The notes under the pieces were generated by a model. The model was not told the origin of the DNA and searched no databases. It saw only the letters and a list, made by a program, of their open reading frames with translations. DNA of 64,000 nucleotides. Source: an uncultured Bizionia sp. (GTDB lineage: Bacteria; Bacteroidota; Bacteroidia; Flavobacteriales; Flavobacteriaceae). The translations under genes and the position numbers were made by a program. The DNA is taken from the NCBI GenBank assembly GCA_947496215.1, contig CANMCF010000015.1, forward strand, positions 45,434-109,433, read 5' to 3'. This document shows, in pieces, positions 5,222-43,803 of the stretch; within the stretch, counting starts at the first letter, position 1, and every line of letters begins with the position of its first letter.

Positions 5222-5243
5222 AAAATACTCGTAATATTGAAAG

Positions 5244-5280: not shown

Positions 5281-5300
5281 GCATTCTAAAATTAGTAATA

Positions 5301-6236: not shown

Positions 6237-6249
6237 CATATATAGGATT

Positions 6250-10593: not shown

Positions 10594-10628
10594 ATTAAAA
10601 GAGACTATAGTTTCTAGAACTTTATTTT

Positions 10629-10666
10629 AAAAGATGCCTTTGGTTAACCGAAGGCATCTTTTTTTT
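10629..10666 (+). terminator. rho-independent terminator of argS
   Basis: The stem AAAAGATGCCTT (10629-10640) pairs with its complement ending at 10662, around a small self-complementary GGTTAACC core, and six Ts follow the GC-rich part. It starts 36 bases after the argS stop. Confidence 0.85.
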
Positions 10667-10832
10667 ATGACGTTGTCTTCACTTTATTCTTTCAAGTCCA
10701 TTTGTGCAATATTTTAAAAGCAAAAACTGGTAGCTACTGGTTGGTTTGTTTGGGTTTATAACAGTAGTTTAGCGAAAAAAATTAACTAACACTTAATATT
10801 TATTTAACCCCTAACTTAAATTAAAATATTGC

Positions 10833-11975
10833 ATGAAAAAAAATTACTTATTATTACTGTTTTTTGCCCCCTTTATTACTTTTGCAGAACCTTCAAACTC
10901 GGCTTTTGTCCCTCCAGTAGCTGAGTTCTCTGCGAATACGAATACAGTATGCGTAGATCAAACAGTTACATTTACAGATCAATCTACAGAATCACCTACA
11001 AGTTGGGCTTGGAGTTTTTTACCTACGACGATAACATTCCAAAATGGGACAGATGCGACTTCTCAAAATCCACAAGTGAGTTTTGACGCTATTGGTGAAT
11101 ACACGGTCACGCTAATGGCCACAAATAGCGACGGCACACATTCCGTTTCAAAATCACAGTATGTGGTTGGGACTTCTGTAGTACCATTATTAGAGGATTT
11201 TACAGCATCTGCACCTCCGTCTGGTTGGCCAATTGTAAATCATGACGGCAACAAAACATGGGAAGCCATTACGACCAAAGGTAGTAACGGAAATGACACT
11301 CAAGTCATCTACATCAATAATTACAACTATAGTGCATCAGGTCAATTGGATGAGCTTGTCATACCAAGTATGGACTTGTCTGGAGTGGTGAATCCAACAT
11401 TGTATTTTGATATAGCCTATGCGCAATATAACAATGGAAATGCTGAACGCTTGTACATAGAGTATTCAACAGATTGTGGTGAGACTTTCAATATTACCAG
11501 CTATGACAAGTCTAGTACGGTATTGGCTACGGTGGCGGATCAAACATCTTACTGGTCTCCTGCTACAGCCGCAGACTGGAGAACCGAAAGTCTTGATTTG
11601 TCGGGTTATGTTAGTTCACAGACCATCTTGAGATTTGTACAGGTCAACGATTACGGAAATAACTTGTTTATAGACAACATAAGAATTGGAGAATCAGGAA
11701 CGCTTAGTATAGAAGAGGTTTCAAAAGCTAATGATATCAAGGTATATCCAAACCCGTCCAATGGTAAGTTTCAAATTAAAATTTCTGAAGCCTTCAATGA
11801 TGCAACAGTAAAGGTTATGGATATACATGGGAGATTATTGTTAAGTAAAACTCTAAACGATTTAAATGGATATGAGCAACAAGAATTAGATTTAACAGCA
11901 TTTTCTGCTGGAAACTACTTTTTAAATTTCACTTCTGGGAAAAAGAGCTATGTAAAGAAAGTAGTTATCGAATAA
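10833..11975 (+). CDS. T9SS type A sorted protein with PKD and choice-of-anchor J domains
   Basis: A 380-residue secreted protein. Signal peptide 1-18 (LLLLFFAPFITFA) is followed by a PKD domain at about 28-112 (FTDQSTESPTSWAWSF, then GEYTVTLMATNSDG). A region at about 118-285 starts LLEDFTASAPPSGWPIVN and ends LFIDNIRIGE, the pattern of choice-of-anchor J (cleaved-adhesin-like) domains. The C-terminal 75 residues begin VYPNPSNGKF and end in SYVKKVVIE, a type A sorting signal for the type IX secretion system. It is likely exported across the outer membrane and attached or released; ligand unknown. A hairpin terminator follows. Confidence 0.92.
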   Translation: MKKNYLLLLFFAPFITFAEPSNSAFVPPVAEFSANTNTVCVDQTVTFTDQSTESPTSWAWSFLPTTITFQNGTDATSQNPQVSFDAIGEYTVTLMATNSDGTHSVSKSQYVVGTSVVPLLEDFTASAPPSGWPIVNHDGNKTWEAITTKGSNGNDTQVIYINNYNYSASGQLDELVIPSMDLSGVVNPTLYFDIAYAQYNNGNAERLYIEYSTDCGETFNITSYDKSSTVLATVADQTSYWSPATAADWRTESLDLSGYVSSQTILRFVQVNDYGNNLFIDNIRIGESGTLSIEEVSKANDIKVYPNPSNGKFQIKISEAFNDATVKVMDIHGRLLLSKTLNDLNGYEQQELDLTAFSAGNYFLNFTSGKKSYVKKVVIE

Positions 11976-12000
11976 GAAGATTGTTAGATCCATTTTGCCG

Positions 12001-12051
12001 TCACCCTTTCGTAATGCATTTTCATAGCATTTGAGAGGGTGATTTGTTTTT
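12001..12051 (+). terminator. probable terminator after the PKD/T9SS gene
   Basis: TCACCCT (12001-12007) pairs with AGGGTGA (12036-12042), with a nested AATGC/GCATT helix inside the loop, and a T-rich TTTGTTTTT run follows. It lies 25 bases after the upstream stop. Confidence 0.65.
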
Positions 12052-12095
12052 ACCTCACCAAAAGCACACAAGACAAATCCAATATGTAAAAGCTG

Positions 12096-12126
12096 TCTGT
12101 TTTTCCAAAATAATATTCTATTTTTG
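12096..12126 (+). promoter_or_regulatory. promoter of the SprT-like gene
   Basis: TATTTTTG at 12119-12126 matches TAnnTTTG exactly, with TCTG at 12096-12099 (one mismatch to TTTG) at exactly 19 bases. The ATG at 12132 is only 5 bases after the -7 box, so the transcript should start at or next to the start codon, giving a leaderless or nearly leaderless mRNA. Confidence 0.6.
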
Positions 12127-12131
12127 TAATA

Positions 12132-12746
12132 ATGCAAGACATATTACAAAAGCACATTGTAACGGAGGCCATACCACAGGTTCTAAGGCTTTTAGAGTAC
12201 GATAATTTAACGGTTCTAGTTAAAAAAGAACGTAAGACCCGACATGGGGATTATAGAAAATTGCCTAACGGGAAACACCAAATAACCGTTAATGGGAATT
12301 TAAACGAGTATCGTTTTTTAATAACACTTATTCATGAAATAGCACATTTCGAGGCTTACAAAGCTTTTGGGAGAGCCATAAAACCTCATGGAATAGAGTG
12401 GAAAAGAACGTTTCAACATTTAATGTTGCCATTTTTAAATCCAAATATATTTCCATCGAAGATATTGCCGTTGTTGGCTAATCACTTTAAAAATCCCAAA
12501 GCATCAAGTGATACAGATGTGGCACTGGCTTTGGCATTGAAACAATTTGATGAGCCCAATGACAAGACCTATGTTTTCGAAGTTCCCATTGGGAGCACAT
12601 TTCAATTATATAATGGTAGACTTTTCAAAAAAGGGGGAAAACGTACAAAACGGTTTGAATGTGTTGAGATTAATTCAGGAAAAGTGTATCTTTTTAACCC
12701 CAATGCTGAAGTTGAATTGATGCCATCAGAAGAGGGGATATCATAG
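12132..12746 (+). CDS. SprT-like zinc metalloprotein
   Basis: A 204-residue cytoplasmic protein with the SprT-like core: LIHEIAHFEA gives the HExxH motif (His68, Glu69, His72), with a third ligand candidate His86 in KPHGIEWK. C-terminal residues 150-180 form a small beta segment (GSTFQLYNGRLFKKGGKRTKRF) that in other family members carries zinc-binding cysteines; here only one Cys remains, so a zinc ribbon is absent or degenerate. SprT-like domains are related to the DNA-protein crosslink protease SPRTN, but the bacterial role is not established. The start is supported by the tightly placed promoter. Confidence 0.85.
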   Translation: MQDILQKHIVTEAIPQVLRLLEYDNLTVLVKKERKTRHGDYRKLPNGKHQITVNGNLNEYRFLITLIHEIAHFEAYKAFGRAIKPHGIEWKRTFQHLMLPFLNPNIFPSKILPLLANHFKNPKASSDTDVALALALKQFDEPNDKTYVFEVPIGSTFQLYNGRLFKKGGKRTKRFECVEINSGKVYLFNPNAEVELMPSEEGIS

Positions 12747-12867
12747 ACTAATTAGTGACTATAGGGAGGGGGTGTAATGTGCTGGTTGTAAGTGGAAAAG
12801 CAAAATGAGTTTAAAGGATTTCTCTTGAGTTTATTTCAAGAAGGATCAAAAAAGTAGGAATAGTAAG

Positions 12868-13947
12868 ATGAATAAAGATTATTACGCAATATTAATGGCA
12901 GGAGGTGTCGGTTCTCGATTCTGGCCAGTAAGTACGCAGGAATTTCCAAAACAGTTTCACGATATGTTGGGAACTGGGGATACACTTATTCAAAAAACAT
13001 TCAATCGCTTGAAAGAAATCATTCCAAAGGAAAATATTTTCATTCTTACCAACGAGTGTTATAACGATTTAGTCTTGGAACAATTGCCGGGGGTCACCAA
13101 AAGACAAGTGGTTTTGGAGCCAGCAATGCGTAATACGGCACCTTGTATCCTATATGCATCATTGAAAATTCAAAAAGAAAACCCCGATGCCGTGATGATT
13201 GTGGCTCCAAGTGATCATTGGATAGAAGATGAGAATGCATTTACTCTAAATGTAAAAGAGGCATTCCGCTTTTGTGCCAATAACGATGCCTTGATGACTT
13301 TGGGGATTACTCCCACTTTTCCAAACACTGGCTACGGTTATATTGAATATGATACAGATTCGAAAGAAAGCATAAAACCAGTAAGTCAATTCAGGGAAAA
13401 GCCGGATTATGATACAGCTAAGGATTTCATAGAAAAAGGCAATTTTTTATGGAATGCTGGTATTTTTATGTGGAATGTAAAGACCGTTGTGAATGCATTT
13501 AAAGCCAACCAACCACAATTGTACGAATTGTTTGAAAGCGGAGTCTCAGTTTACAACACTGATTTCGAAGATGATTTCATAAGAGATAATTATGGAAAGG
13601 CAGAAAACATATCGGTAGATTATGCCATAATGGAAAAGTCGGACAATGTATATGTATTACCAGCAATTTTCGACTGGAATGATTTGGGGACTTGGGGTAG
13701 TTTATACGATAAGTTGGATAAAGACAATAATGACAATGCCATCGTAAATGCGCGAACATTGACCGAAGACGCAAGAGGTAACATGATTCGGACAAAGGAC
13801 AACAAAGTCGTCGTGATTGATGGTCTGCAAGATTACATAATAGTGGATAAAGATGAAGTATTGCTTATTTATCCGAAGACAAAGGAACAAGACATAAAGA
13901 AAGTACTTCAAAGTGTAAAAAAGAACTTTGGAGATCATTTAGGATAA
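12868..13947 (+). CDS. mannose-1-phosphate guanylyltransferase
   Basis: A 359-residue nucleotidyltransferase making GDP-mannose from mannose-1-phosphate and GTP for surface polysaccharides. Motifs are LMAGGVGSRFWP (nucleotide-binding loop, residues 9-20), KQFHDML, APSDHWI (metal site), NTGYGYIEY, FREKPD (sugar-phosphate site) and NAGIFMW. The length matches single-domain enzymes without the C-terminal isomerase of the bifunctional ManC/AlgA type. It stands without other polysaccharide genes next to it; it follows the SprT-like gene on the same strand after 121 bases. Confidence 0.95.
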   Translation: MNKDYYAILMAGGVGSRFWPVSTQEFPKQFHDMLGTGDTLIQKTFNRLKEIIPKENIFILTNECYNDLVLEQLPGVTKRQVVLEPAMRNTAPCILYASLKIQKENPDAVMIVAPSDHWIEDENAFTLNVKEAFRFCANNDALMTLGITPTFPNTGYGYIEYDTDSKESIKPVSQFREKPDYDTAKDFIEKGNFLWNAGIFMWNVKTVVNAFKANQPQLYELFESGVSVYNTDFEDDFIRDNYGKAENISVDYAIMEKSDNVYVLPAIFDWNDLGTWGSLYDKLDKDNNDNAIVNARTLTEDARGNMIRTKDNKVVVIDGLQDYIIVDKDEVLLIYPKTKEQDIKKVLQSVKKNFGDHLG

Positions 13948-14055
13948 ATTATTACGAGACATTTCGAATGATTTGGATATGTGGAAATTGCATCTGTAAA
14001 CCTTTGATGCAATTTTTCAAGAAGAATTCGAACTGGAGATACCAAGTATAAGATT

Positions 14056-15501
14056 ATGGAAGAAAATAAATTCAACTTTTCTGATGAAGAAGGAAAAAAG
14101 GAGGATGCTGTAAAACAATCCAAGGAAGCAGTAAAGCAAGATGCCAAGGGGCTTTTTGAAAGTGGTAAACATTTTGTGAAAGAAATTTTCGATTTCAGGG
14201 ATGACACGGATCGGGATGCTACCATTACAGCTATCAAAAATGACATTCCTTTAAAGGGAGCCACAGTCTGGATTTTAATTTTTGCGATTTTCGTTGCATC
14301 GATTGGTCTGAATCTGAGTTCGACGGCAGTGGTGATAGGTGCGATGTTGATTTCCCCATTGATGGGACCCATTTTAGGAGTGGGAATGTCGTTGGCCATC
14401 AATGATATCGATACCCTGAAAAGTTCTTTTGTAAACCTGTTCGTAATGGTTTTCCTAAGTGTGTTGACAGCCTACCTGTATTTTAGAATATCTCCTTTGA
14501 CTGAACTGACCCCTGAATTGGAAGCTAGAACATCACCTAACATCTTAGATGTATTCATTGCCATTTTTGGTGGGTTGGCACTCATTGTGGCACGAACAAA
14601 AAAAGGTACGATTGCCTCTGTTATATTTGGTGTTGCTATCGCTACGGCATTGATGCCTCCATTATGTACTGCCGGTTATGGATTAGCAGTATGGAACATT
14701 GATTACTTCTTGGGTGCAATGTACCTATTTACCATTAATACCATATTTATAGCATTGGCCACCTTTGTGGTGTTGAAGGTATTGCGTTTTCCCATGCTTA
14801 AATATGCAAATTCGAAAAAGCGCAAGCGCATAGCCCAAATAGCAACATTTTTTGGGGTTATAGCCATGATACCGGCAATAATGACATTCATAACCCTATT
14901 GAAGGAGACGGGAATAAATAGCGATTATAAAAACTTTGTAAAAAACGAGATAGAGGTCAATGATAACCTATGGCTGCAAAAAGAAAAAATTGACATAGCC
15001 GAAAACAAGATAACGTTACGATTCAATGGGGAAATCAATAAAGTAACAAGGACAGATCTGACAAATGAGCTCAAGGGCTATGAAAACATAAAGGGATTTA
15101 GTCTAGATATATATGATAATGGACGTAGTGCAGAAAAGTTGTCTAATTCTCTAGACAGAGCCTATGAAGATTTGGATAGAAAGGAAAATGTCATTTCCGG
15201 GCTGCAAAAGGAAATTGAAGGTTTGAAGACGGAGATTGAAAACATTCAGAATAAAAGAGGTAACATCGATTTTCCAGCGATAGCAAAAGATGCAAAAATC
15301 AGATACAAGGAGTTGGAATACTTTGGTTATGCTCGAATGTTGGAGTCCAAGGATTTCATAAAGATAGATACTATTCCCGTGGTGCATTTAAAATGGAATA
15401 CAACGATTAACGATAGTATTAAAACCGTTAAGGAAAAAGAATTGAATGGTTGGTTGAAACAGGAATTGAAACTCAAAAACATTATTATAAAACGAGATTA
15501 G
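14056..15501 (+). CDS. DUF389 family membrane protein with C-terminal coiled coil
   Basis: A 481-residue protein. About 60 charged residues precede a core of six or seven membrane helices (about 68-283) with DUF389 hallmarks: STAVVIGAMLISPLMGPI, a GGLALIVARTKKGT loop and ATALMPPLCTAGYGLA. The C-terminal 200 residues are soluble, with a predicted coiled coil at about 360-395 (ENVISGLQKEIEGLKTEIEN). DUF389 proteins are widespread but their transport or signalling role is not established. The soluble tail is longer than in minimal family members. It converges with the ABC gene after a 94-base gap. Confidence 0.88.
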   Translation: MEENKFNFSDEEGKKEDAVKQSKEAVKQDAKGLFESGKHFVKEIFDFRDDTDRDATITAIKNDIPLKGATVWILIFAIFVASIGLNLSSTAVVIGAMLISPLMGPILGVGMSLAINDIDTLKSSFVNLFVMVFLSVLTAYLYFRISPLTELTPELEARTSPNILDVFIAIFGGLALIVARTKKGTIASVIFGVAIATALMPPLCTAGYGLAVWNIDYFLGAMYLFTINTIFIALATFVVLKVLRFPMLKYANSKKRKRIAQIATFFGVIAMIPAIMTFITLLKETGINSDYKNFVKNEIEVNDNLWLQKEKIDIAENKITLRFNGEINKVTRTDLTNELKGYENIKGFSLDIYDNGRSAEKLSNSLDRAYEDLDRKENVISGLQKEIEGLKTEIENIQNKRGNIDFPAIAKDAKIRYKELEYFGYARMLESKDFIKIDTIPVVHLKWNTTINDSIKTVKEKELNGWLKQELKLKNIIIKRD

Positions 15502-15595
15502 TTCGAAACTCTAAATTTCAGATTAAGAAATATAAATATTACTATTTGAATAGAAAGGTTTGCCTATGCCTGTAACTTATGCTATAGATTGAAAA

Positions 15596-16363
15596 CTATT
15601 GGCTCTCCTCCAAATACATCTTGCGTACTTTCTTAAATAGATTTGAAGAATAAACAAAATCCGTAACGACTTCATTGTCAGTTTTGAAAATGGTTTCTTT
15701 AGAGCCTTCCCAAGCTTTAAGCCCTTCTTTCAAGAACACGATCTTTTCTCCAATTTCCATTACAGAATTCATATCATGAGAGTTGATTACGGTTGTGATG
15801 CCATATTCATCTGTGATTTCTTGGATTAGATTATCTATGACGATTGCGGTTTTTGGATCCAAACCAGAGTTTGGCTCGTCGCAAAACAAGTATTTGGGGT
15901 TATTTACAATGGCTCTCGCAATTGCAACACGTTTCTGCATACCCCCGGAAGCTTCACTTGGCATTTTGTTATGAGCATTTGGTAAATTAACACGCTTCAA
16001 TACAAAATCTGCTCTATCCATCATTTCACTTTTGCTTTGTTTGGTAAACATTTGCAATGGAAACATTACGTTTTCGACAATGGTCAAGGAATCGAAAAGA
16101 GCACTGCCTTGAAATACCATTCCAATGTCTGCTCTTAAATCTCGTTTCTTATCTTCTGTAAGTTGGGCAAATATTTTACCATCGTATGCAATGCTACCTT
16201 GTTCATAATCAAACAAACCCAACAGGCATTTTAAAAACACCGTTTTTCCAGAGCCACTTTGCCCAATGATGAGATTGGTTTTGCCTTTTTCGAAAGTAGT
16301 CGTAATCCCTTTTAATATATGGGCATCTCCAAACGACTTCTGTAAATCTTTAACTTCAATCAT
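15596..16363 (-). CDS. ABC transporter ATP-binding protein, MlaF-like
   Basis: A 255-residue ATPase. The start is placed at ATG 16363 (MIEVKDLQKS), which overlaps the permease stop in TAATG; an upstream start at 16423 would add 20 residues inside the permease. Walker A is GQSGSGKT (34-41), the signature SGGMQKRVAIARA, Walker B YLFCDEPNSGLDP and the switch His in INSHDMN. The SGGM signature and pairing with an MlaE permease indicate the Mla/MCE class that moves phospholipids or other lipids between membranes. The substrate-binding MCE protein (MlaD) is not in the window. Confidence 0.92.
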   Translation of the reverse strand: MIEVKDLQKSFGDAHILKGITTTFEKGKTNLIIGQSGSGKTVFLKCLLGLFDYEQGSIAYDGKIFAQLTEDKKRDLRADIGMVFQGSALFDSLTIVENVMFPLQMFTKQSKSEMMDRADFVLKRVNLPNAHNKMPSEASGGMQKRVAIARAIVNNPKYLFCDEPNSGLDPKTAIVIDNLIQEITDEYGITTVINSHDMNSVMEIGEKIVFLKEGLKAWEGSKETIFKTDNEVVTDFVYSSNLFKKVRKMYLEESQ

Positions 16364-17100
16364 TAGCTCAACAACATTTGGGTTAGTATATAGTTTAAAA
16401 GAATTATGATGACACTTGTCCAAACAAAGGATGTCGTACTGGCTTTTCCAACTTCCAGAGCACCTCCTTTCATATAATAACCATGAAAAGAAGGAACAGT
16501 TGCCAATATAAAAGCAAATAAGAATGTCTTTATAAAAGCATAGACAATATGAAATGGGGTGAATTCAGTTTGTATCCCCATGATATAATCATCCAAAGTG
16601 GCATAGCCACCAAAGACACATGCAGCCAATCCTCCCATAATGCCTAAAAACATGGCGATGGAAATAATGAAAGGATACAATGTCAAAGAAATAAACTTGG
16701 GAAATACCAAATAGTTCAAAGAATTGATTCCCATGACCTCCAAAGCATCGATTTGCTCGGTAACTCGCATTGTTCCGATACTTGATGTAATGAAGGAACC
16801 TACTTTTCCTGCCATGATAATGGACATGAAAGTAGGAGCAAATTCTAAAATGATGGATTGCCTAGTGGCAAAGCCAACTAGGTATTTGGGTATGAGGGGG
16901 TTGTCTATGTTTAAAGCAGTTTGTATTGTAACGACGCCACCAACAAAAAAGGAAATGAAAGATACGATACCCAAAGAACCAATGATGAGGTCATCTACGT
17001 CCTTTAAAATAAGTTGCTTCATAACGGACCATTTGGTTGGCTTGCGAAACATCTCGACAATCATTAAGAAATAAACACCAATATTATGTAGGTACTGCAT
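16363..17100 (-). CDS. MlaE-type ABC transporter permease
   Basis: A 245-residue integral membrane protein of the MlaE/YrbE family with five or so hydrophobic segments. Typical family stretches are FVGGVVTIQTALN, EFAPTFMSIIMAGKVGSFITSS, IDALEVMGINSLNYLVFPK and a glycine-rich GIMGGLAACVFGGY. It is the membrane part of a lipid ABC transporter with the ATPase encoded immediately downstream; stop and start overlap by one base. It is transcribed divergently from the phosphatase gene at 17215. Confidence 0.93.
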   Translation of the reverse strand: MQYLHNIGVYFLMIVEMFRKPTKWSVMKQLILKDVDDLIIGSLGIVSFISFFVGGVVTIQTALNIDNPLIPKYLVGFATRQSIILEFAPTFMSIIMAGKVGSFITSSIGTMRVTEQIDALEVMGINSLNYLVFPKFISLTLYPFIISIAMFLGIMGGLAACVFGGYATLDDYIMGIQTEFTPFHIVYAFIKTFLFAFILATVPSFHGYYMKGGALEVGKASTTSFVWTSVIIILLNYILTQMLLS

Positions 17101-34453: not shown

Positions 34454-36643
34454 ATGATATTTTCTGCGAGATACTTTTGTTGTATTTTAGTCATCCTGAG
34501 CATACAAAACTCAATGTTTGCTCAAGGTATTTCTGCAAAAGACAAATTGCAATTAGACTCCATAGACAAAGTTGCCAGTAGAGCATTCTCATTATGCCAA
34601 AAAAGTAAATATGGAGAAGCTGTTAAAATGGCAAAAGAGGTTTTGGAGTATGCCAAATCAAAGAATAATGATTCATTGAAGGGTAGGGCATACAGTATTT
34701 TAGGTTGGAGTTACCCTATGTTGGGAGAGCATGCCAAAGGGTTGAATTACTTGTTGATGACAAAAGATATCTATGTGAAATTGAAGGATACCACGAGATT
34801 GATTTTTGCAGACAATGATTTGGGAATCTATTATAGGGACCTCGATAGCATGCGGGTATCAAACACCTATTTTGAAAAGGCGATGCATCTAGCCAAGAAT
34901 TACAAGAACAATGCTATGAGATTGTATCCTGCATATAACTTGGGCCTTAATTTCTTGGAGTTTGAAAAAGACAATGAACGGGCTGTTGAATATTTGGAAT
35001 TGGCTGCATCATTGGTAAAGACTTCCAAATGTGCCAAAAACAATCGTATTGTTGCAGACATATATGAAGCTTTGGGGTATGTATATTATAAATTAAAGCG
35101 AAAGGGTGATTCGAAAGCATACTATGAGAAATGCTTGGAGTACTCAAAAAAGCATGGATATTTAGAGGTGATATCCATGGTTTATTGGAGTAAATCAGAA
35201 TTATACAAGGAGGAAGGAGAGTATGAAAAAGCAAATGAGATGCTTTATAAATACATGGATGTCAATGACTCTATAATTAAAGTGACAAACTATGAAAAGG
35301 TCAAGGAGGTCGAGGCAGAATATTTCATAAAAGAAAATAAAAGTAAACTGGAATTCATTAAGAATGAAAAGAAGATGCAGGAAGTCGCTATCAAAAAATC
35401 CAAAGGATATAATTTTATTTTAATCGCGCTTAGCTTGGTTTTGTTTCTAAATATGTGTTGGATATTCAAAAAAAACAAAGCACTCAGATCGGCAAGGGAC
35501 AAAGCAGAAAGTCTATCAAGGGTGAAAAGTGAGTTCTATTCTGAGATTAGCCATGAGTTGCGTACACCTCTTTATGCGGTTATAGAGCTTTCCAGTTTGT
35601 TGCTCAGAGAGAATATAAGTGTAAAGCATAAGGAGTATTTGGAATCCCTCAAATTTTCTGGAAACCATTTGATGTCGTTGATAAACAATGTGCTTCAGTT
35701 GAATAAAGTTGAATCAGGTACTATGAAGGTTCAACGATTGGAATTTGATTTGAAAAACTTGATATCCAATATAATCGATAGCTTGGAATATGCATTGAGA
35801 GATAGTAACAACTCGATTAGTTTGAAGTATGGTGACAATATTCCAAAGTTATTGGTTGGAGATTCCTTAAAGCTCTCACAAGTATTGATTAATTTAATTT
35901 CCAATGCGATAAAGTTTACCAACGATGGACATATAGATGTAGTTATCAATCAAGTGGATGAAACAGAGAGTGTGTCTAAGATTTACTTTAAGGTTTCTGA
36001 TGATGGCTTAGGAATACCCATGGAGAAAAAAGAACAAGTCTTTGAGGATTTCTATCAAGAAAACCATAAAAACACCACATCTTACAAAGGAACAGGTTTA
36101 GGTTTGTCCATCGTAAAACGAATTCTTACAGCAATGGATAGTAGTATTCATATGGTTAGCAAAGAAAACGAAGGAGCAACCTTATTCTTTGAGTTGGCAT
36201 TCGAAAAAAGTACAAAATCCAACCTGCCTGTCACTGTATATCAAAATCAATTGGAGCAAATAAAAGATTGTCACATTTTAATTGTAGATGACAATAAGAT
36301 AAATCAATTGGTAACTCGCAAAATTCTGGATCAATTAGGGATCAAATCCAAAACGGTAGACTCTGGTCTTAAAGCCATAAATATGGTGCAAGAAGAAGAT
36401 TTCGATTGCATTTTAATGGATTTGCACATGCCAGAATTGGATGGATATGAAACAACCAAACTCATTAGAAGTTTTAATCAAAATATAGCTATTGTTGCAT
36501 TGACGGCAGCTACATCGGAAGAAGTGGAAAGTAAGATACACTTCTATGATATTAATGGCTATGTATTGAAACCATTTATGATCGATGAGTTTGTCGAAAC
36601 CCTAAATAAGGCCATTCATAGATCAGAAGGCCATTTATTTTAA
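34454..36643 (+). CDS. TPR hybrid sensor histidine kinase, array copy 1
   Basis: A 729-residue protein. Signal peptide 1-23 (ending MFAQ), periplasmic TPR array about 38-275, juxtamembrane coiled coil 280-317, one membrane helix 319-338, HisKA with His367 in EISHELRTP, HATPase with Asn484 (NLISNAIKF), Asp517 (SDDGLGI) and GTGLGLSI (546-553). The C-terminal receiver (607-729) has acidic pocket VDDNK, phospho-acceptor Asp656, Thr684 and Lys706. All catalytic residues are intact. There is no output domain after the receiver, so phosphate must leave through another protein. The 5' leader (34308-34453) shows no exact consensus -7 box. Confidence 0.93.
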   Translation: MIFSARYFCCILVILSIQNSMFAQGISAKDKLQLDSIDKVASRAFSLCQKSKYGEAVKMAKEVLEYAKSKNNDSLKGRAYSILGWSYPMLGEHAKGLNYLLMTKDIYVKLKDTTRLIFADNDLGIYYRDLDSMRVSNTYFEKAMHLAKNYKNNAMRLYPAYNLGLNFLEFEKDNERAVEYLELAASLVKTSKCAKNNRIVADIYEALGYVYYKLKRKGDSKAYYEKCLEYSKKHGYLEVISMVYWSKSELYKEEGEYEKANEMLYKYMDVNDSIIKVTNYEKVKEVEAEYFIKENKSKLEFIKNEKKMQEVAIKKSKGYNFILIALSLVLFLNMCWIFKKNKALRSARDKAESLSRVKSEFYSEISHELRTPLYAVIELSSLLLRENISVKHKEYLESLKFSGNHLMSLINNVLQLNKVESGTMKVQRLEFDLKNLISNIIDSLEYALRDSNNSISLKYGDNIPKLLVGDSLKLSQVLINLISNAIKFTNDGHIDVVINQVDETESVSKIYFKVSDDGLGIPMEKKEQVFEDFYQENHKNTTSYKGTGLGLSIVKRILTAMDSSIHMVSKENEGATLFFELAFEKSTKSNLPVTVYQNQLEQIKDCHILIVDDNKINQLVTRKILDQLGIKSKTVDSGLKAINMVQEEDFDCILMDLHMPELDGYETTKLIRSFNQNIAIVALTAATSEEVESKIHFYDINGYVLKPFMIDEFVETLNKAIHRSEGHLF

Positions 36644-36942
36644 CCAACTCGATGCTTATGAGCAAAAAGAACTGCTCTAGTTGTTTTGTTTTTTCTAACA
36701 TAATGTACATTAATTTGATTAATGATGGAAATCAATACAAGTTTTACATAAAATGATCATCCGAGTTCTTCAGTATTCTATAAAATGTAAAGTGCTGACA
36801 ATAAACATCTATAAGTCTACGTGATTATTTTTTTATATATAAAATGTAGTCTTTTTCTTTCTTATTTAATGTGTTTAATCGATGAAAGTTATTTTTTTTA
36901 CGATTAAACGTGTGTTTTTGACAATATTTTTATTAGCTTACA

Positions 36943-39141
36943 ATGGTGAAAATATTACTTATGAAGTATCTCTTATGTGGATTATTATTTTTTTCTTGTA
37001 TGCAAAGCTCGATTTTTGCGCAAGATCAAAAAGAGTTAGATTCTCTTTTTGAGGTGGTTAGGGGTGTTTATGAGTTTAGTCATCAAAATAAATTGGCTGA
37101 AGCCATCAAAATTGGTAGTGAGATACTGGAGTATGAGAAGAAAAACAGAAACGATTCGTTAAGAGCCAGAACTTACAATGCATTGGGAGTGTCTTACACG
37201 ACATTAAAAAGTCCCAAGGGGTTGGAATTTTTTTTGAAATCCAAAGAAGTCTACGAAAAGCTAAAAGATACCTTTCACTTGATATCATCCTATAACAACC
37301 TTGGAGTATACCACAAACTCATGATTATGGATTTTGAAAAATCCAATGATTATTTCAACAAGGCGATAGAAATAGCGAATGCAGCCAAGCACTATAAAGA
37401 AACAATTCATCCAAACTTCAATTTAGCAGATAATCTAATAAACCGAAAGAAGAATCATAACAACATCGAAGATTATGAAAAAGCAATTATATATCTGACA
37501 AGCACATTGAAATTGTTGGATACCACTACGGAAAAAAAGTTCAACAGGGTAAAGGCTGACATCTATGAATCTTTGGGATATGCATATTCCAAGGTTGATA
37601 AATATGAATTGGCCAATAGGTATTTTGAAAAGGCTTTTGAATATTCGAAGTCCAAAGGCTATTTGGAAGTAATAGCATATTTATATGAGGATAGGGCAGT
37701 TCTATTCGGAGAGCAGGGGAAGTATGAGGCGCAAACAAAAATGCTTGAGCATTTGATTGCTACGAAGGATTCTATATATGAAACGGAAAAATTTGATATG
37801 ATTAAAAAATTTGAATCCGAATATTTCATTAAAGAGAATGAAGAAAAACTAAAATTCATAAAAAAGGAAAAGGTAATTCAAGAGGCAACGATAGAAAAGG
37901 CTAAGATATATAACATCATACTTGGGGTTTTTAGTATAGTATTGTTTTTAAGTGTTTGTAGTATTTTCAAGAAGAACAATGAGTTAAAGCAAGCAAAGGA
38001 CAAGGCGGAGAGCCTGTCGAAGGTAAAGAGTGATTTTTATTCAGAAATCAGTCATGAGTTGAGAACACCTTTGTATGCAGTCATAGAGTTGTCAAATTTG
38101 TTGTTGAAGGAAAATATAAATGTGAGACATAAGGAATACTTGGAATCGTTGAGGTTTTCTGGAAACCATTTGATGGCATTGATAAACAATGTTTTGCAAC
38201 TCAATAAGATGGAATCTGGAAAAATGAAGATTCAAAAAATGGATTTCGATTTGGAATATTTGATTAATAGCATCATAGAAAGTTTGGAGTATGCTATAAA
38301 TGACAGCAACAATAAAATTAATTTGGAATACGATAGGAGTCTTCCAAAAGTTGTGGTAGGAGATTCTTTGAAGCTATCCCAGGTCTTAATCAACTTAATA
38401 TCCAATGCCATAAAGTTCACTAATAATGGTCATATAGATATTCTTATAAAGAAGATGGCAGAAACCAAGGAATCCATTACAGTTTATTTTAAGGTGAAGG
38501 ATGATGGTTTGGGGATTTCCAAAGAAAAGCAAACTCGGATATTTGAGGATTTTTATCAAGAACATGCTAAAAATGACAAGTCATATAAAGGAACTGGCCT
38601 AGGGCTGTCCATCGTAAGGCGAATTCTGATAGCAATGAATAGTATGATAAGAGTCAAAAGCAAAGAAAATGAAGGGACAGCCTTTTCTTTTGAATTGATT
38701 CTTTGGAAAAGCCAAAAAATCGATATGCCAGTTGCTTCATATGCATACCAAATTGAGCATATAAGAGGCAGCAACATTTTAATAGTGGATGACAACAAAA
38801 TCAATCAATTGGTCACCAAAAAGGTCTTGGATGGATTAGGGGTGAAGTCCAAAGCAATCGATTCTGGAAAAAAAGCCATCGAAATTATAAAAAATGAAAC
38901 TTTCGATTGTATTTTAATGGATTTGCATATGCCGGAATTGGATGGATATGAAACCACGAAAATAATAAGAAGGTTTAATAAGGATATTGCCATAGTGGCT
39001 TTGACAGCGGCTTCCTCGGATGAGGTAGAAGCTAAAATAATAAATTATGACATAGATGGTTATGTGCTAAAACCTTTTAGGATTGCAGAGTTTGTTGAGG
39101 TGGTAAACAATGCAATCTACAAAACAGTGGAAATTGTTTAA
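36943..39141 (+). CDS. TPR hybrid sensor histidine kinase, array copy 2
   Basis: A 732-residue protein; ATG 36961 (MKYLLCGLL) is an alternative start 6 residues in and gives a more typical signal peptide, which ends near SIFAQ. TPRs span about 33-285, the membrane helix 322-342. His371 is in EISHELRTP, the N box is NLISNAIKF, the G boxes DDGLGI and GTGLGLSI. The receiver has Asp660 and Lys710. Before this gene is a 299-base AT-rich gap with no recognisable coding frame. The sensor part differs from copy 1 mainly in the TPR surface residues (for example an NRKKNHNNIEDY insertion near 167-178), suggesting a different ligand or partner. Confidence 0.93.
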   Translation: MVKILLMKYLLCGLLFFSCMQSSIFAQDQKELDSLFEVVRGVYEFSHQNKLAEAIKIGSEILEYEKKNRNDSLRARTYNALGVSYTTLKSPKGLEFFLKSKEVYEKLKDTFHLISSYNNLGVYHKLMIMDFEKSNDYFNKAIEIANAAKHYKETIHPNFNLADNLINRKKNHNNIEDYEKAIIYLTSTLKLLDTTTEKKFNRVKADIYESLGYAYSKVDKYELANRYFEKAFEYSKSKGYLEVIAYLYEDRAVLFGEQGKYEAQTKMLEHLIATKDSIYETEKFDMIKKFESEYFIKENEEKLKFIKKEKVIQEATIEKAKIYNIILGVFSIVLFLSVCSIFKKNNELKQAKDKAESLSKVKSDFYSEISHELRTPLYAVIELSNLLLKENINVRHKEYLESLRFSGNHLMALINNVLQLNKMESGKMKIQKMDFDLEYLINSIIESLEYAINDSNNKINLEYDRSLPKVVVGDSLKLSQVLINLISNAIKFTNNGHIDILIKKMAETKESITVYFKVKDDGLGISKEKQTRIFEDFYQEHAKNDKSYKGTGLGLSIVRRILIAMNSMIRVKSKENEGTAFSFELILWKSQKIDMPVASYAYQIEHIRGSNILIVDDNKINQLVTKKVLDGLGVKSKAIDSGKKAIEIIKNETFDCILMDLHMPELDGYETTKIIRRFNKDIAIVALTAASSDEVEAKIINYDIDGYVLKPFRIAEFVEVVNNAIYKTVEIV

Positions 39142-39249
39142 TGACCTACCTTGTATACAATGGGATTTTGTTTTAATGAACAGTTTTGATGGTCTGTGAC
39201 ATAGGTTGTAAAAAAATTATTACATTGTTGTAAATAAAAAAGTGAATGT

Positions 39250-41415
39250 ATGAAGCTCCCCTTTTATAGTTTTATGGTTTTTCTATATATGCATTGTATT
39301 GCATATGCTCAAGAGAACAATGAAATCCAATTGGATTCTGCCATCGCAGTGATCAAGGAAGCTTACGATTTGAGCCAGCAAAGCAAATATGGTGAAGCCA
39401 TAAAAGTAAGCAATGAGGTATTTGAGTATGCCAAACATCATAAAAGTGATTTCCTAAAGGCTAAAGCATTGAATGTTTTGGGGATTTCCTATAATGCCTT
39501 GGGGGAGGCAGACAAATCCATGGGCTTCTTTATCTCAGCAAAAAAGCTTTATGAAAAAATAAAGGATACCTCAAGAATCATTGTAGTAAATAACAATTTG
39601 GGAGTGCTATATCAAACCAAAGGTGATTATAAAGAATCAAATGCCTATTATGAAAAAGCATTGAAGATTGCAGAGAAATCCAAAAAATACGATTCGGCAA
39701 TATATCCAGCTTTTAATATTGGACATAATTTAATCTACGAAAAAGAAGATTATGCTCAAGGGATTCTATATTTGGATAGAACACTTCAATTAGTCGAAAA
39801 GGCAGATGGTGTAAAGGTGGAACGCATAAAGGTAGACACATACGAAGCATTGGGCTACGCCTATCATAAGGTCAAGAAGAAGGGGAAGTCTATTCTTTAC
39901 TATGACAAAGCTCTTCAGCTTTCTGAAGCAGATGGGTATTTGGAGTCCTTGCAAAGTATCTACGAGAACAGGGCGCAACTGTACGCGGAAGATAGACAGT
40001 TTGAGAAAGCCAACGAATTGTTATACAAATTGATTGAGGTCAATGACTCCATAAAGAAAGTGACGAATTACGAACAGGTAAAGCTAATAGAGGCAGAGTA
40101 TTTCGTAAAAGAAAATAAGAACAAGTTGAAGCTAATAGAGAGTGAGAAATCCTCTCAAGAGGCAGTTATTGCCAAATCTAGAATATATAATCTTGTTTTG
40201 ATAGTCTTTAGTTGCATTCTGCTTTTAAATGTGTATTGGATATTCAAAAAGAACAAGCAACTCAGTCTTGCAAAGGAAAAAGCAGAGAACCTGTCCAAGA
40301 TAAAGAGTGATTTCTATTCGGAAATTAGCCACGAGCTCCGTACTCCACTCTATGCGGTGATAGAGCTGACAGGTTTGTTGCTGAGGGAGGAGGTAAGTGT
40401 AAAGCATAAGGAGTATTTGGAGTCTCTTAAGTTTTCCGGAAGCCATTTAATGTCATTGATAAACAATGTCTTGGAGTTGAATAAGGTGGAGTCTGGTAAA
40501 ATGAAGATTCAATTACTGGATTTCGATTTGAAGAATTTGTTGTCCAATATCATAGATAGTCTTGAATATGCACTTAGAGATAGCAACAACACAATCAACT
40601 TGAAATATGATGATGACATTCCAAGCCTTTTGGTGGGAGATTCCTTGAAGTTGTCTCAAATTTTCATAAACTTGATATCAAATGCAATTAAGTTTACGAA
40701 CAACGGGCACATAAAGATTTTAGTCAATCAAATATCGGAAACAGACAAAGAAGTGAGGATTTATTTTGAGGTTTCGGATAATGGATTGGGAATCTCAAAA
40801 GAAAAGCAAGCAAAAATCTTTGAAGACTTCTATCAAGAACATATTAAAACAAAGAACTCGTATAATGGGACAGGATTGGGGCTGTCGATTGTAAAACGAA
40901 TTCTCCTGGCAATGGATAGTGACATCAGCATAGAGAGTGAAGAACAAAAGGGAACTTCTTTCTTCTTCGAGTTGACATTTGAGAAAAGGAGCAAATCCAA
41001 TGAGCCTGTAGCTCTTTATTCCAATCAGTTGGAGGCCATTAAAGGGAGCTATATATTGATAGTGGACGATAATAAGATTAATCAATTGGTTACTAAAAAA
41101 GTTCTGGACTCATTGGAAATGAAATCAAAGACTGTCGATTCTGGAGCCAAAGCGATCGAAGCTGTTAAAACTGAAAAATTCGATTGTATACTGATGGATT
41201 TACATATGCCGGAATTGGATGGCTATGAAACGACTAGGTTGATTAGAGAGTTTAATGAAGAACTGCCTATAGTGGCATTGACAGCAGCTTCAACAGATGA
41301 GGTAGAAGCAAATATAAAGAACTATGATATGAATGGCTATGTACTTAAGCCATTTATAACTACCGAGTTTGTTCAGGTGATGAACAAGGCAATTCATAGA
41401 AATGAAAGCCAGTGA
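39250..41415 (+). CDS. TPR hybrid sensor histidine kinase, array copy 3
   Basis: A 721-residue protein, the shortest of the four. Signal peptide 1-20 (ending AYAQ), TPRs about 28-270, membrane helix 312-332, His361, N box NLISNAIKF, G1 SDNGLGI, G2 GTGLGLSI, receiver Asp650 and Lys700. It resembles copy 1 closely over TPR and kinase (for example the shared QSKYGEA and NDSIxKVTNYE segments and DLKNLLSNIIDSLEYALRDS versus DLKNLISNIIDSLEYALRDS), which suggests that copies 1 and 3 descend from a later duplication than the others. It starts 108 bases after copy 2, the shortest gap in the array. Confidence 0.93.
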   Translation: MKLPFYSFMVFLYMHCIAYAQENNEIQLDSAIAVIKEAYDLSQQSKYGEAIKVSNEVFEYAKHHKSDFLKAKALNVLGISYNALGEADKSMGFFISAKKLYEKIKDTSRIIVVNNNLGVLYQTKGDYKESNAYYEKALKIAEKSKKYDSAIYPAFNIGHNLIYEKEDYAQGILYLDRTLQLVEKADGVKVERIKVDTYEALGYAYHKVKKKGKSILYYDKALQLSEADGYLESLQSIYENRAQLYAEDRQFEKANELLYKLIEVNDSIKKVTNYEQVKLIEAEYFVKENKNKLKLIESEKSSQEAVIAKSRIYNLVLIVFSCILLLNVYWIFKKNKQLSLAKEKAENLSKIKSDFYSEISHELRTPLYAVIELTGLLLREEVSVKHKEYLESLKFSGSHLMSLINNVLELNKVESGKMKIQLLDFDLKNLLSNIIDSLEYALRDSNNTINLKYDDDIPSLLVGDSLKLSQIFINLISNAIKFTNNGHIKILVNQISETDKEVRIYFEVSDNGLGISKEKQAKIFEDFYQEHIKTKNSYNGTGLGLSIVKRILLAMDSDISIESEEQKGTSFFFELTFEKRSKSNEPVALYSNQLEAIKGSYILIVDDNKINQLVTKKVLDSLEMKSKTVDSGAKAIEAVKTEKFDCILMDLHMPELDGYETTRLIREFNEELPIVALTAASTDEVEANIKNYDMNGYVLKPFITTEFVQVMNKAIHRNESQ

Positions 41416-41604
41416 GAGGGTTGTTTGTTAATGTGCTTTGCCAATTGTTTAAATTGGTTTTTGCTAGATTGTTTTTTTTGGGTAAGCTTTATCGTTTTAT
41501 ATGATTGTTTATCGTTGTTTTTTTGTGATTTGCTTTGTTATTGTTAATGTTGTATAAATGTAGTAAATTACGGATGAGTCTGATTTCTATTTTAGTGTAA
41601 ACAA

Positions 41605-43803
41605 ATGCGTTGTGCTCCCTACATCACAGTAATACTCTTAATGCTGACTACGTCAAGTTTGGCACAGGTGAATAATGATTCTTCTCAAATAAATGACACT
41701 GCACTTGTCAATTCCAGTTACTTGAAATTAAAGAAGGCTTTCGACTTGACGCATGATGTTAAAAATAGTGAAGCCTTCATAATGGCCCAAGAAGTCTTGG
41801 AGGTAGCAAATGAAATACAGAATGATTCTCTAAAGGCTAAAACTTATAATATATTGGGGATTTCTTCCCTAATGAGAGATTCCAATGATGACAAAGCCCT
41901 TGAGTATTTAAATAAATCCTTTGCCATATATGAAAAACTATTGGATACAGCCAGAATGGCTATGGTGTACAACAATATGGCTTTGTATCATAAGTATAGG
42001 GATGAATATGATGTAGCCGATGTTTATTATGAAAAAGGGCTCAAGCTAATAGAGAATTCCGAAGACCGTAAGAGCCTTGCAAGAAAAGTAGTATTGTATT
42101 ACAACATCGCCTATGCCAGCTATAAAAACGAACACTATCAAAAAACCATATCGTATTTGAATAAATCTCTCGAGATAAAAGACAAAACAGAAAATAAAAT
42201 ATTGGAGGGGAATGTTTATTGGGTATTTGGATGGACATATTTGAAGCTGAAAGATTATGAAAAAGCTCACCATTATTTTGATAAAACCATAGATTTTTCG
42301 AGAAGAATGGAAAACTTGGATTTGAGGATAGATGCATACGACGGGAAGATAGAAGTCTTTACAGCTCAAAATAATTATAAGAGGGCCAATGAGTATTTGC
42401 TGAAAATGCGAGTAATCAATGATTCTCTGGACAAAGTTTTGGAAGATGACAGAATAAGGGAAATTGAATACGAATATGCTCTTAAAGATCGCGAGAAGAA
42501 GGTTGCATTAATTGAGAAAGAGGCGGAATTACAAAGAGAATCATTGAAGATTAGCAACATATTCAATTTTGTCTTAGTTGCTTTAAGTGGAATATTATTG
42601 ATATTCGGAGCCATGTTGTTGAAGAAAAACAAGGAGGTAAAAAAGGAAAGAGACAGGGCAAATAAGCTTTCCAAGGCTAAATCCAACTTTTATTCAGAGA
42701 TAAGCCATGAATTGAGAACTCCATTGTATGCGGTCATAGAGTTATCCGGTATCTTGCTTAAAGGCGGAAGTAATTTTTCCAACAATGCGAAGTATTTGAA
42801 ATGTTTGAAGTTTTCTGGAAACCACTTGTTGTCTTTGATAAACAATGTTTTGGAGTTCAACAAAAAGGATAAAGAAGGAATTCGCATAGATTTAATGGAG
42901 TTCAATTTAAAAGAGCTCATTAAAAATATTATAGATTCTCTTGAGTATGCCTTGAGGGAAAATGAGAACACCATACAGCTAAGCTATGATGAATCCATAC
43001 CCCAAATTATCATTGGAGACTCCTTGAAGCTCACTCAAATAATGATGAACTTGATAACGAATGCCATCAAGTATACAAATAATGGACATATAGACGTTGA
43101 GGTGAAGACTCTCAAAGAAGAAGGAAACTCAGTACAGCTTTATTTTTGTGTTTCAGACGATGGTCTAGGAATTTTAAAGGAAGAACAAGAAAAGATATTT
43201 AAAACGTTTTATCGTGAGAAAGCAAAAAGCAATAGCTCGTACAAAGGAACAGGCCTAGGCTTATCCATAGTCAAACAGCTTTTAAATGTATTGAATAGTG
43301 ACATCAACATAGAAAGTGAGGCGAATAAAGGGGCCAAGTTTTATTTTGAGCTGGATTTCACTAAAGGAATAGAAAAGGGAAACAAAGAAAGTGAACAAGA
43401 TTTTTTTGTCAAAAAGTTGGAAAACAAGTTGTTTTTAATCGTAGATGATAATAAAATAAATCAAATAGTGACGAAAAAAGTACTGGATCAACTTGGTTTG
43501 ACTTGTAATGTGGTTGGCTCAGGCAAAAAAGCAATAAAAGCGATAAAAGAAAAGCAGTACGATTGTATTTTAATGGATTTGCATATGCCGGAAATAGATG
43601 GTTATGAAACGTCAAATCAAATACGGTTGTTTGATAAAGGTGTTGGAATTGTTGCTTTGACAGCTGCATCTGGAGAGGAGGTCGCAGCTAAAATAAATGA
43701 TTATGATATGGATGGCTATGTCTTAAAACCATATTACACGTTCAACCTTTTGAAAGCAATGGTAGACGCACTGGCAAAAAGGAAGCAACTGTCATTGGAC
43801 TAA
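41605..43803 (+). CDS. TPR hybrid sensor histidine kinase, array copy 4
   Basis: A 732-residue protein, the most diverged copy. Signal peptide 1-20 (ending SLAQ), TPRs about 38-275, membrane helix 319-339, His368, N box NLITNAIKY, G1 SDDGLGI, G2 GTGLGLSI, receiver Asp658 and Lys708. Distinguishing features are a KGGSNFSNNA insert after the H box, EFNKKDKEG in place of the NKVESGKM segment of the other copies, and a receiver ending in KPYYTFNLLKAM rather than KPFxxxEFV. All catalytic residues remain, so it should be active. It ends 14 bases before the convergent coaD stop, with no visible terminator between. Confidence 0.93.
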   Translation: MRCAPYITVILLMLTTSSLAQVNNDSSQINDTALVNSSYLKLKKAFDLTHDVKNSEAFIMAQEVLEVANEIQNDSLKAKTYNILGISSLMRDSNDDKALEYLNKSFAIYEKLLDTARMAMVYNNMALYHKYRDEYDVADVYYEKGLKLIENSEDRKSLARKVVLYYNIAYASYKNEHYQKTISYLNKSLEIKDKTENKILEGNVYWVFGWTYLKLKDYEKAHHYFDKTIDFSRRMENLDLRIDAYDGKIEVFTAQNNYKRANEYLLKMRVINDSLDKVLEDDRIREIEYEYALKDREKKVALIEKEAELQRESLKISNIFNFVLVALSGILLIFGAMLLKKNKEVKKERDRANKLSKAKSNFYSEISHELRTPLYAVIELSGILLKGGSNFSNNAKYLKCLKFSGNHLLSLINNVLEFNKKDKEGIRIDLMEFNLKELIKNIIDSLEYALRENENTIQLSYDESIPQIIIGDSLKLTQIMMNLITNAIKYTNNGHIDVEVKTLKEEGNSVQLYFCVSDDGLGILKEEQEKIFKTFYREKAKSNSSYKGTGLGLSIVKQLLNVLNSDINIESEANKGAKFYFELDFTKGIEKGNKESEQDFFVKKLENKLFLIVDDNKINQIVTKKVLDQLGLTCNVVGSGKKAIKAIKEKQYDCILMDLHMPEIDGYETSNQIRLFDKGVGIVALTAASGEEVAAKINDYDMDGYVLKPYYTFNLLKAMVDALAKRKQLSLD

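What the first reader, a model, noticed from the sequence alone, without database searches (positions are those of the whole stretch)
34454..43803. Four consecutive paralogous TPR hybrid histidine kinases with no output gene
Seen directly: four adjacent genes of nearly equal length and identical domain order (signal peptide, periplasmic TPRs, one membrane helix, HisKA, HATPase, receiver), all with intact His, Asp, Thr and Lys catalytic residues. Family knowledge: hybrid kinases normally pass phosphate through an Hpt protein to a response regulator. Inference: an expanded sensor battery in which divergent periplasmic TPRs read different signals and feed one shared downstream regulator encoded elsewhere. 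No Hpt, HTH or LytTR regulator lies within the flanking genes (SulP on one side, coaD on the other).
Basis: partly seen in the sequence, partly recalled or inferred. Interest (0 to 1): 0.72.

Follow-up and report, generated by a model that had tools for sequence, protein, structure and literature searches.

The report
Four sensor kinases, one distant relay
Four neighbouring genes in a flavobacterium encode related sensor kinases whose predicted outward-facing sensing halves differ far more than their inner signalling halves; a relay-type protein that seemed to be missing lies elsewhere in the genome, and all four likely pass their phosphate to it, which would make the array a set of exchangeable sensors on one shared circuit.

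Summary
In detail: four intact TPR-TM-HisKA-HATPase-receiver hybrid kinases lie between SulP and coaD, with no Hpt or regulator nearby. The genome holds ten such kinases. The "missing" step exists: an orphan 113-aa Hpt between a fumarylacetoacetate-hydrolase-like gene (FAH) and cinA, which Pfam's Hpt model scores below its cut-off. In 120 Flavobacteriaceae genera the TPR hybrid kinase occurs in 92 and this Hpt in 88, always with the kinase. The four exceptions are assemblies under 90% complete whose Hpt locus is cut or not found. One control regulator showed no association, another a weaker one, and only two changes of Hpt state are firmly supported on the tree, so the link is strong but partly confounded. 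The array is syntenic and varies from one to four copies. Two close Lacinutrix genomes share 95-97% of kinase and receiver residues at this locus but only 40% of the TPR half, between flanks 85-100% identical: a sensor-cassette replacement. Best reading: exchangeable periplasmic TPR sensors on a conserved core that likely feed one shared Hpt. Phosphotransfer is untested and the final response regulator was not identified.

The parts
34454..36643 (+). K1, TPR hybrid histidine kinase, 729 aa
34454..35401 (+). K1 signal-peptide-like N-terminus and TPR sensing half (residues 1-316), predicted periplasmic
   Evidence: TPR_12; helices 27-294 in the model; hydrophobic segment 317-340 follows
35525..36202 (+). 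K1 HisKA-HATPase (residues 358-583), His367
36275..36604 (+). K1 receiver (608-717), acceptor Asp656
36943..39141 (+). K2, TPR hybrid histidine kinase, 732 aa
36943..37896 (+). K2 N-terminus and TPR sensing half (1-318), predicted periplasmic
38026..38697 (+). K2 HisKA-HATPase (362-585), His371
38776..39105 (+). K2 receiver (612-721), acceptor Asp660
39250..41415 (+). K3, TPR hybrid histidine kinase, 721 aa
39250..40161 (+). K3 N-terminus and TPR sensing half (1-304), predicted periplasmic
40303..40980 (+). K3 HisKA-HATPase (352-577), His361
41053..41379 (+). K3 receiver (602-710), acceptor Asp650
41605..43803 (+). K4, TPR hybrid histidine kinase, 732 aa, most diverged copy
41605..42540 (+). 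K4 N-terminus and TPR sensing half (1-312), predicted periplasmic
42676..43362 (+). K4 HisKA-HATPase (358-586), His368
43435..43758 (+). K4 receiver (611-718), acceptor Asp658

Best explanation
The four genes encode hybrid histidine kinases with divergent TPR halves, predicted to lie in the periplasm, on a conserved kinase-receiver core, and they likely pass phosphate from their receivers to one shared orphan Hpt protein encoded elsewhere in the genome (between FAH and cinA), which would hand it to a response regulator not yet identified. Shown here: domain order and intact catalytic residues; the orphan Hpt, by sequence profile and predicted fold; its joint presence and absence with this kinase family; variable copy number at one syntenic locus; and a sensor-half replacement over a nearly unchanged core in two relatives. 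Inferred: ligand binding by the TPRs (perhaps peptides or proteins), autophosphorylation, His-to-Asp transfer within each kinase, Asp-to-His transfer to the Hpt, and Hpt-to-regulator transfer. The window array would be a lineage-specific extension of a family-wide core pair: the single-copy kinase at lpxK-gap-lipA and the Hpt at FAH-cinA.
For: No Hpt in or beside the four kinases. The genome shows only two Hpt proteins by three searches; the orphan one is at G000:C13:127388-127726 (113 aa), has the invariant HxxK motif of its family, its profile matches 18 PDB entries at E<0.02, all Hpt-type by name or entry, first of all 3myf, and the model of a 95% identical relative (pLDDT 90) matches Hpt crystal structures best (TM 0.8, prob 1.00; best E 4.6e-3, none at E<=0.001). 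Over 120 genera: kinase and Hpt both in 88, kinase only 4, Hpt only 0, neither 28; FAH-Hpt-cinA order in 88 of 88; of 22 Hpt-negative genomes with cinA found, none has the Hpt there, and in 14 FAH and cinA are joined within 65 bp. The four exceptions are 84-88% complete, with cinA cut by a contig end (G017) or not found (G079, G100, G105). An NtrC-like RR used as control is not associated (88 of 92 versus 25 of 28, p 0.35). In 19 genomes the distances of the kinase core track those of the Hpt beyond seven neighbouring genes (partial r HK 0.70, receiver 0.55; those genes -0.32 to 0.46). The core stays while the sensor changes: L093 versus L094 HK 95%, receiver 97%, TPR 40% aa, flanks 85-100% nt.
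Against: No biochemical evidence. The presence/absence link rests on few independent events: 7 changes on the best tree (one due to the contig-edge genome G017), only 2 forced by starred branches, independent-pairs test p=1 for lack of power. 18 of 28 kinase-negative genomes are 2.3 Mb or smaller, and a REC-type RR family with a neighbouring kinase of its own is also associated (73 of 92 versus 2 of 28), so part of the signal is genome complexity or clade. The coupling was seen for the kinase family as a whole, not for K1-K4 themselves; they could have shifted partner. A second Hpt exists in the H-NOX operon. The terminal regulator is unknown.
Confidence: 0.6

Rival explanations
1. The receivers are not relay donors but built-in regulators (autoinhibition or phosphate sinks), and the kinases phosphorylate a separate response regulator directly, without Hpt.
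For: Many stand-alone receivers exist in the genome (69 receiver matches in all), and no transfer to the Hpt was measured.
Against: It does not explain why the orphan Hpt is never found without this kinase family (0 of 120) and never absent where the locus is assembled.
Confidence: 0.15
2. The kinases use the other Hpt, the 105-aa protein of the H-NOX operon, and its LytTR regulator, so that nitric oxide and TPR signals converge there.
For: That Hpt lies next to an H-NOX protein, a kinase and a LytTR regulator, and convergence of H-NOX and other sensors on one Hpt is described for Vibrio (PMC3759921, search listing with the start of the abstract only).
Against: The operon has its own kinase and single-domain receiver. 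In the 40 relatives I saw this operon type only in the own genome, G002 and, by the neighbouring genes, G010, far fewer than carry the kinases; its distribution was not searched for in its own right.
Confidence: 0.1
3. Co-occurrence without contact: kinase family and Hpt are both lost in the same simplified or diverged lineages, but work in different circuits.
For: 18 of 28 negatives have genomes of 2.3 Mb or less; seven Hpt-negative genomes form one clade; a REC-type RR family shows a similar though looser pattern.
Against: Ten negatives are 2.6-4.8 Mb and lack both; an NtrC-like RR is not associated and a REC-type RR family has 21 discordant genomes against none for the Hpt where its locus is assembled; distances covary beyond housekeeping genes.
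Confidence: 0.1
4. The array is redundant duplication: the copies sense the same thing and the TPR differences are mostly relaxed drift.
For: TPR halves evolve faster even between orthologues (K3 versus L089: dN 0.09 versus 0.03 in HK); copy number varies from 1 to 4.
Against: All four copies keep every catalytic residue, and each has an orthologue in the Bizionia MAG at 82-85% TPR identity. The L093/L094 TPR difference has sharp edges and raised synonymous change (dS 1.15 versus 0.5), so it is replacement, not drift.
Confidence: 0.05

Closest known systems
Vibrio quorum-sensing phosphorelay (several hybrid kinases onto LuxU)
   Same: Several hybrid kinases are thought to converge on one stand-alone Hpt; LuxU is among the PDB relatives of the orphan Hpt profile (1y6d, E 0.017). 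Convergence itself is recalled and seen in abstract starts only (PMC3759921, PMC3482212).
   Different: Sensors here are TPR domains, the genes are scattered, the regulator is unknown, and convergence is inferred, not measured.
Pseudomonas aeruginosa HptB with several hybrid kinases
   Same: Stand-alone Hpt without a neighbouring sensor; HptB is a top fold match (7c1i, TM 0.80). That several kinases feed it is recalled.
   Different: Different kinases and phylum; here the array is tandem and its sensor halves get replaced.
Porphyromonas gingivalis FimS/FimR
   Same: TPR repeats in the periplasmic sensor of a histidine kinase of the same phylum (PMC11053733, passages); the FimS model matches all four (161-179 bits).
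   Different: Far below the FimS cut-off of 600 bits. The model ends with the kinase domain, whereas K1-K4 have a receiver, and FimR is described as the cognate regulator of FimS.
Bacteroides one-protein hybrid two-component systems (glycan sensing)
   Same: Hybrid kinases of Bacteroidetes that combine sensing and receiver (one is mentioned in PMC6365647, passages).
   Different: Those carry their own DNA-binding domain (recalled); none is found in K1-K4.

Membership tests
Hybrid sensor histidine kinase | HisKA with phospho-acceptor His, HATPase_c with N and G boxes | tested here: met
   4 of 4
Hybrid sensor histidine kinase | C-terminal receiver with DD, acceptor Asp, Thr and Lys | tested here: met
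   4 of 4
Hybrid sensor histidine kinase | Kinase activity and phosphotransfer to the receiver | not testable with these tools
   needs purified protein
FimS-type TPR sensor kinase (NF053520) | Score above the family cut-off | tested here: not met
   161-179 bits, cut-off 600
Hpt protein (the orphan partner) | Pfam PF01627 gathering score | tested here: not met
   16.0 bits, cut-off 24.6
Hpt protein (the orphan partner) | HxxK phospho-acceptor motif conserved in the family | tested here: met
   H56 and K59 invariant in 16 of 16 aligned Hpts
Hpt protein (the orphan partner) | Helical-bundle Hpt fold | tested here: met
   model pLDDT 90 of a 95% identical relative; best matches are Hpt structures, TM 0.8, though Foldseek E is 4.6e-3 at best; profile-to-PDB hits are Hpts
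Many-to-one hybrid kinase/Hpt phosphorelay | One Hpt serves several hybrid kinases | tested here: inconclusive
   two Hpts found for ten TPR hybrids plus five other hybrids; co-occurrence in 88 of 92; no biochemistry
Many-to-one hybrid kinase/Hpt phosphorelay | Terminal response regulator served by the Hpt | tested here: inconclusive
   two candidates tested over 120 genomes: NtrC-like RR nearly universal and uncoupled; REC-type RR family coupled, but next to a kinase of its own in 19 of 20 stretches read

The most novel reading that the evidence does not exclude
Flavobacteriaceae run a family-wide, chromosomally scattered phosphorelay whose fixed parts are one TPR hybrid kinase (lpxK-gap locus) and one orphan Hpt (FAH-cinA locus). 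Lineages plug extra sensors into it by tandem duplication and by replacing whole periplasmic TPR cassettes on a homogenised kinase core: a recombination-driven, exchangeable sensor array with a fixed output.
Probability: 0.42. Interest if true: 0.72.

Novelty: new variant of a known kind. Interest (0 to 1): 0.55.

Why it matters
Orphan and hybrid kinases are reported to be frequent in marine bacteria and hard to assign a function (PMC6365647, passages). Here a specific, unlinked candidate partner can be named and tested for a whole bacterial family, and the SulP-coaD locus gives a natural experiment in which the sensor half changed while the core stayed. If the relay is real, it predicts that TPR sensors can be exchanged without rewiring the output.

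Tried and rejected
Pfam Hpt search of the genome suggested a single Hpt, in an H-NOX operon; this was incomplete, since a search with a relative's Hpt found the orphan one. NtrC-like RR as output: suggested by order-level relatives whose Hpt lies beside an NtrC-like RR (L102, L104, L106), but it is in 113 of 120 genomes and not associated with the kinases. REC-type RR family (query from C8:92070): associated, but in 19 of 20 fetched stretches (not L296) the RR has a 665-707-aa ORF beside it that looks like a TPR kinase by eye (not domain-scanned), so I keep it as a measure of background, not as the output. nadE-dnaG orphan LuxR-type RR: set aside as a phospho-acceptor because the acceptor Asp reads Glu and DD reads DK, by eye. 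Other orphan-looking RRs (L066, L073, L076, L270, and L271's own locus) were not tested as outputs. GAF-type hybrid at C11 as specificity control: at E<=1e-140 found only in the own genome (1 of 120), uninformative. First distance-correlation test was poorly controlled (CinA itself gave 0.68 given FAH), so it was repeated with seven control genes; one of 20 genomes dropped out because not all neighbours were found. Flavobacterial promoter motif (recalled, TTG-N17-23-TAnnTTTG) in the gaps: no exact match, one relaxed match at 41425 (first part). Sigma-70-type matches in the array (30) are fewer than in shuffles (39.9), so not used. One search scored at most 9 candidates per genome, so copies above 9 cannot appear; the own genome shows 9 there and 10. 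The Hpt orthologue cut (E 1e-25) was set after seeing the gap between 5.9e-28 and 3.5e-20; the synteny check is independent of it. Left out of the identity and tree tables: L095 (fragmented) and L097, L098 (core-only matches).
Full report
OBSERVATION. The four ORFs are present as described. Pfam finds TPR_12, HisKA, HATPase_c and Response_reg above cut-off in each; the catalytic residues are intact in 4 of 4. An AlphaFold2 model of K1 (10-row alignment, mean pLDDT 78, pTM 0.41, so relative domain placement is unsure) shows helices 27-294 in TPR-like pairs, one long helix through the membrane segment into the DHp helix, and a well-modelled receiver. By profile the cores match solved hybrid kinases and Sln1-type receivers, and the sensor halves match TPR proteins (best 60 of 404 shown). 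No copy contains an Hpt or DNA-binding domain, and I see none in the flanking genes (by eye).

GENOME CONTEXT. The genome (G000, 4.95 Mb, 99.96% complete; window at C15:45434-109433) has ten full-length members of this family: the four here, three at C2:406840-418546, and singles at C2:556573, C13:7646 and C10:48961. Five further hybrids match from the kinase through the receiver only. It has 69 receiver matches and 29 LytTR matches.

THE MISSING HPT. Pfam's Hpt model finds one weak match, a 105-aa protein in an operon with a single-domain RR, an H-NOX protein, a histidine kinase and a LytTR regulator. In relatives, however, Hpt matches repeatedly fell on a gene of about 113 aa between FAH and cinA. 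Searching the own genome with the copy of a same-genus relative gave an 81% identical protein at C13:127388-127726 in the same gene order. Pfam scores it 16.0 bits against a cut-off of 24.6. It has the invariant HxxK motif; in the profile search of the PDB the 18 hits at E<0.02 are Hpt-type; the model of a 95% identical relative is a confident helical bundle whose best matches are Hpt crystal structures (TM 0.8, best E 4.6e-3, none at E<=0.001). Public records name some orthologues Hpt domain-containing protein and others hypothetical; none of the 120 listed of 1397 homologues carries a precomputed Pfam domain. The protein as such is therefore not new; its coupling to these kinases is what I add. 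Two Hpts is a lower bound: more diverged ones could be missed.

CO-OCCURRENCE. In 120 Flavobacteriaceae genomes, one per genus, the TPR hybrid kinase (E<=1e-150) is in 92 and the Hpt orthologue in 88; both 88, kinase only 4, Hpt only 0, neither 28 (Fisher p 2e-23, which ignores kinship). Eight more genomes have only weaker, other Hpt matches, six of them without the kinase, so Hpt domains in general are not what tracks the kinase. The Hpt lies with FAH and cinA in 88 of 88. Of 32 Hpt-negative genomes, cinA was found in 22 and none has the Hpt there: FAH and cinA are joined within 65 bp in 14, are separated by about 590-750 bp without an Hpt-like frame in two (G064, G050), and FAH is not within the fetched stretch in six. 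The four kinase-only genomes are 84-88% complete; in G017 cinA is cut by the contig start, and in G079, G100 and G105 cinA was not found.

LIMITS OF THAT LINK. On a CinA+FAH tree of 109 genomes (G133 dropped as a fragment; 104 rows with FAH) the Hpt state needs 7 changes, one due to G017, and only 2 are forced by well supported branches; the independent-pairs test has no power (p 1). 18 of 28 kinase-negative genomes are 2.3 Mb or smaller, ten are 2.6-4.8 Mb, and seven of the 21 Hpt-negative rows form one clade. Two control regulators over the same genomes: an NtrC-like RR is uncoupled (88 of 92 versus 25 of 28, p 0.35), while a REC-type RR family is partly coupled (73 of 92 versus 2 of 28) with 21 discordant genomes. 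So part of the signal is genome complexity or clade, but of the three only the Hpt is free of discordance where its locus is assembled. In 19 genomes kinase-Hpt distances correlate beyond seven neighbouring genes (partial r HK 0.70, receiver 0.55; the seven genes -0.32 to 0.46); an earlier, less controlled version gave higher values.

WHICH KINASE IS THE CORE PARTNER. I fetched 19 stretches around kinases of genomes with one copy at the threshold (the twentieth stretch was around another Hpt). lpxK, gap, lipA and two further neighbours of the own C2:556573 copy were all found in 19 of 20 stretches, the own one included. In the part of the printout that was not cut, the kinase itself is the only receiver protein in these stretches. 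The family-wide copy is thus the lpxK-gap-lipA one, and the window array is an expansion. The own genome has the most copies of the 120 (others at most 4).

THE ARRAY IN RELATIVES. A scan of one genome for each of 84,980 species with K3 gave eight loci from Bizionia, Lacinutrix, Flavivirga and an uncultured Flavobacteriaceae, plus two distant core-only matches (the scan finds close relatives only and may leave out the own genome). All eight have the kinases between SulP and coaD, with 4 copies (L089), 2 (L090), 1 (L091), 3 plus another kinase-like gene (L092), 1 (L093), 1 (L094), 2 fragmented (L095) and 1 (L096); L090 and L091 have one extra ORF before coaD (SulP and coaD recognised by sequence, by eye). 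K1-K4 pair one to one with the four Bizionia copies.

SENSOR REPLACEMENT. L093 and L094 have one kinase each at this locus. Flanking DNA is 85-100% identical in 150-base windows; from about 9750 to 11000 (L093 coordinates), covering the upstream gap and the TPR half, identity is 49-66% apart from a gapped block (19%) at the start and transitional windows (77%, 83%) at the edges; the HK (95% aa) and receiver (97%) are again nearly identical. Synonymous divergence is also raised there (dS 1.15 versus 0.5), so this is replacement, not rapid drift. The L093 TPR half groups with L090_a and L091_a while its core groups with L094. In the own genome C2b and C2c share 89% of HK residues (dS 1.05) but 33% of TPR and 74% of receiver residues, consistent with conversion of the HK segment. 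Among K1-K3 no such recent conversion shows: dS is 2.2 or more, or not computable, in every segment.

MECHANISM. From family knowledge, HisKA hybrids pass phosphate His-Asp-His-Asp. With intact residues, no built-in Hpt, and one orphan Hpt that tracks the family, the likeliest route is TPR sensing in the periplasm, autophosphorylation, receiver, FAH-cinA Hpt, then an unknown regulator. Kinase anatomy, Hpt identity, co-occurrence and sensor replacement are shown; every transfer step is inferred. Sensing of peptides by TPRs is suggested by FimS, where substitutions in TPR motifs changed FimA production and a polypeptide ligand is considered (PMC11053733, passages).

LITERATURE. PMC4558063 (passages) reports HPt domains in 49.79% of 235 Bacteroidetes species; profile insensitivity such as seen here may lower such counts (inference). 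PMC6365647 (passages) stresses orphan and hybrid kinases in marine bacteria. PMC6759604, PMC3759921 and PMC3482212 were seen in the search listing with the start of the abstract only. Searches for 'tetratricopeptide' + 'hybrid histidine kinase' + 'Flavobacter' and for 'Hpt' + 'Flavobacteriaceae' + 'hybrid histidine kinase' gave 0 papers in the held library; the titles listed show none on this system. Absence from that library is not absence from print.

Noticed in passing
L084 (G000:C23:58000-68370), 5609-9702: Operon-like run of single-domain RR, H-NOX protein, histidine kinase, 105-aa Hpt and LytTR regulator: a possible nitric-oxide phosphorelay with its own Hpt.
   Followed up: partly
L263 (G000:C16:29500-34500), 2444-3082: LuxR-type regulator between nadE-like and dnaG-like genes whose receiver reads Glu at the acceptor position and DK for DD by eye: a possible pseudo-receiver in a core locus.
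   Followed up: partly
L081 (G000:C2:402000-421500), 4829-16571: Second cluster of three TPR hybrid kinases; two of them (12055-14229 and 14409-16571) have 89% identical HK segments but 33% identical TPR halves.
   Followed up: partly
L095 (Lacinutrix neustonica HL-RS19), 6488-13005: SulP and both array kinases appear as fragments, as do other genes nearby; sequencing error or decay, not decided.
   Followed up: no
L092, 5639-7681: A 680-aa kinase-like gene without the array's receiver ending lies between SulP and the three array kinases.
   Followed up: no
L102, L104, L106 (order-level relatives): In other families of the order a related Hpt lies beside an NtrC-like RR; in L102 and L106 a single-domain RR and a sugar-transferase-like gene follow, hinting at an exopolysaccharide-linked phosphorelay.
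   Followed up: partly
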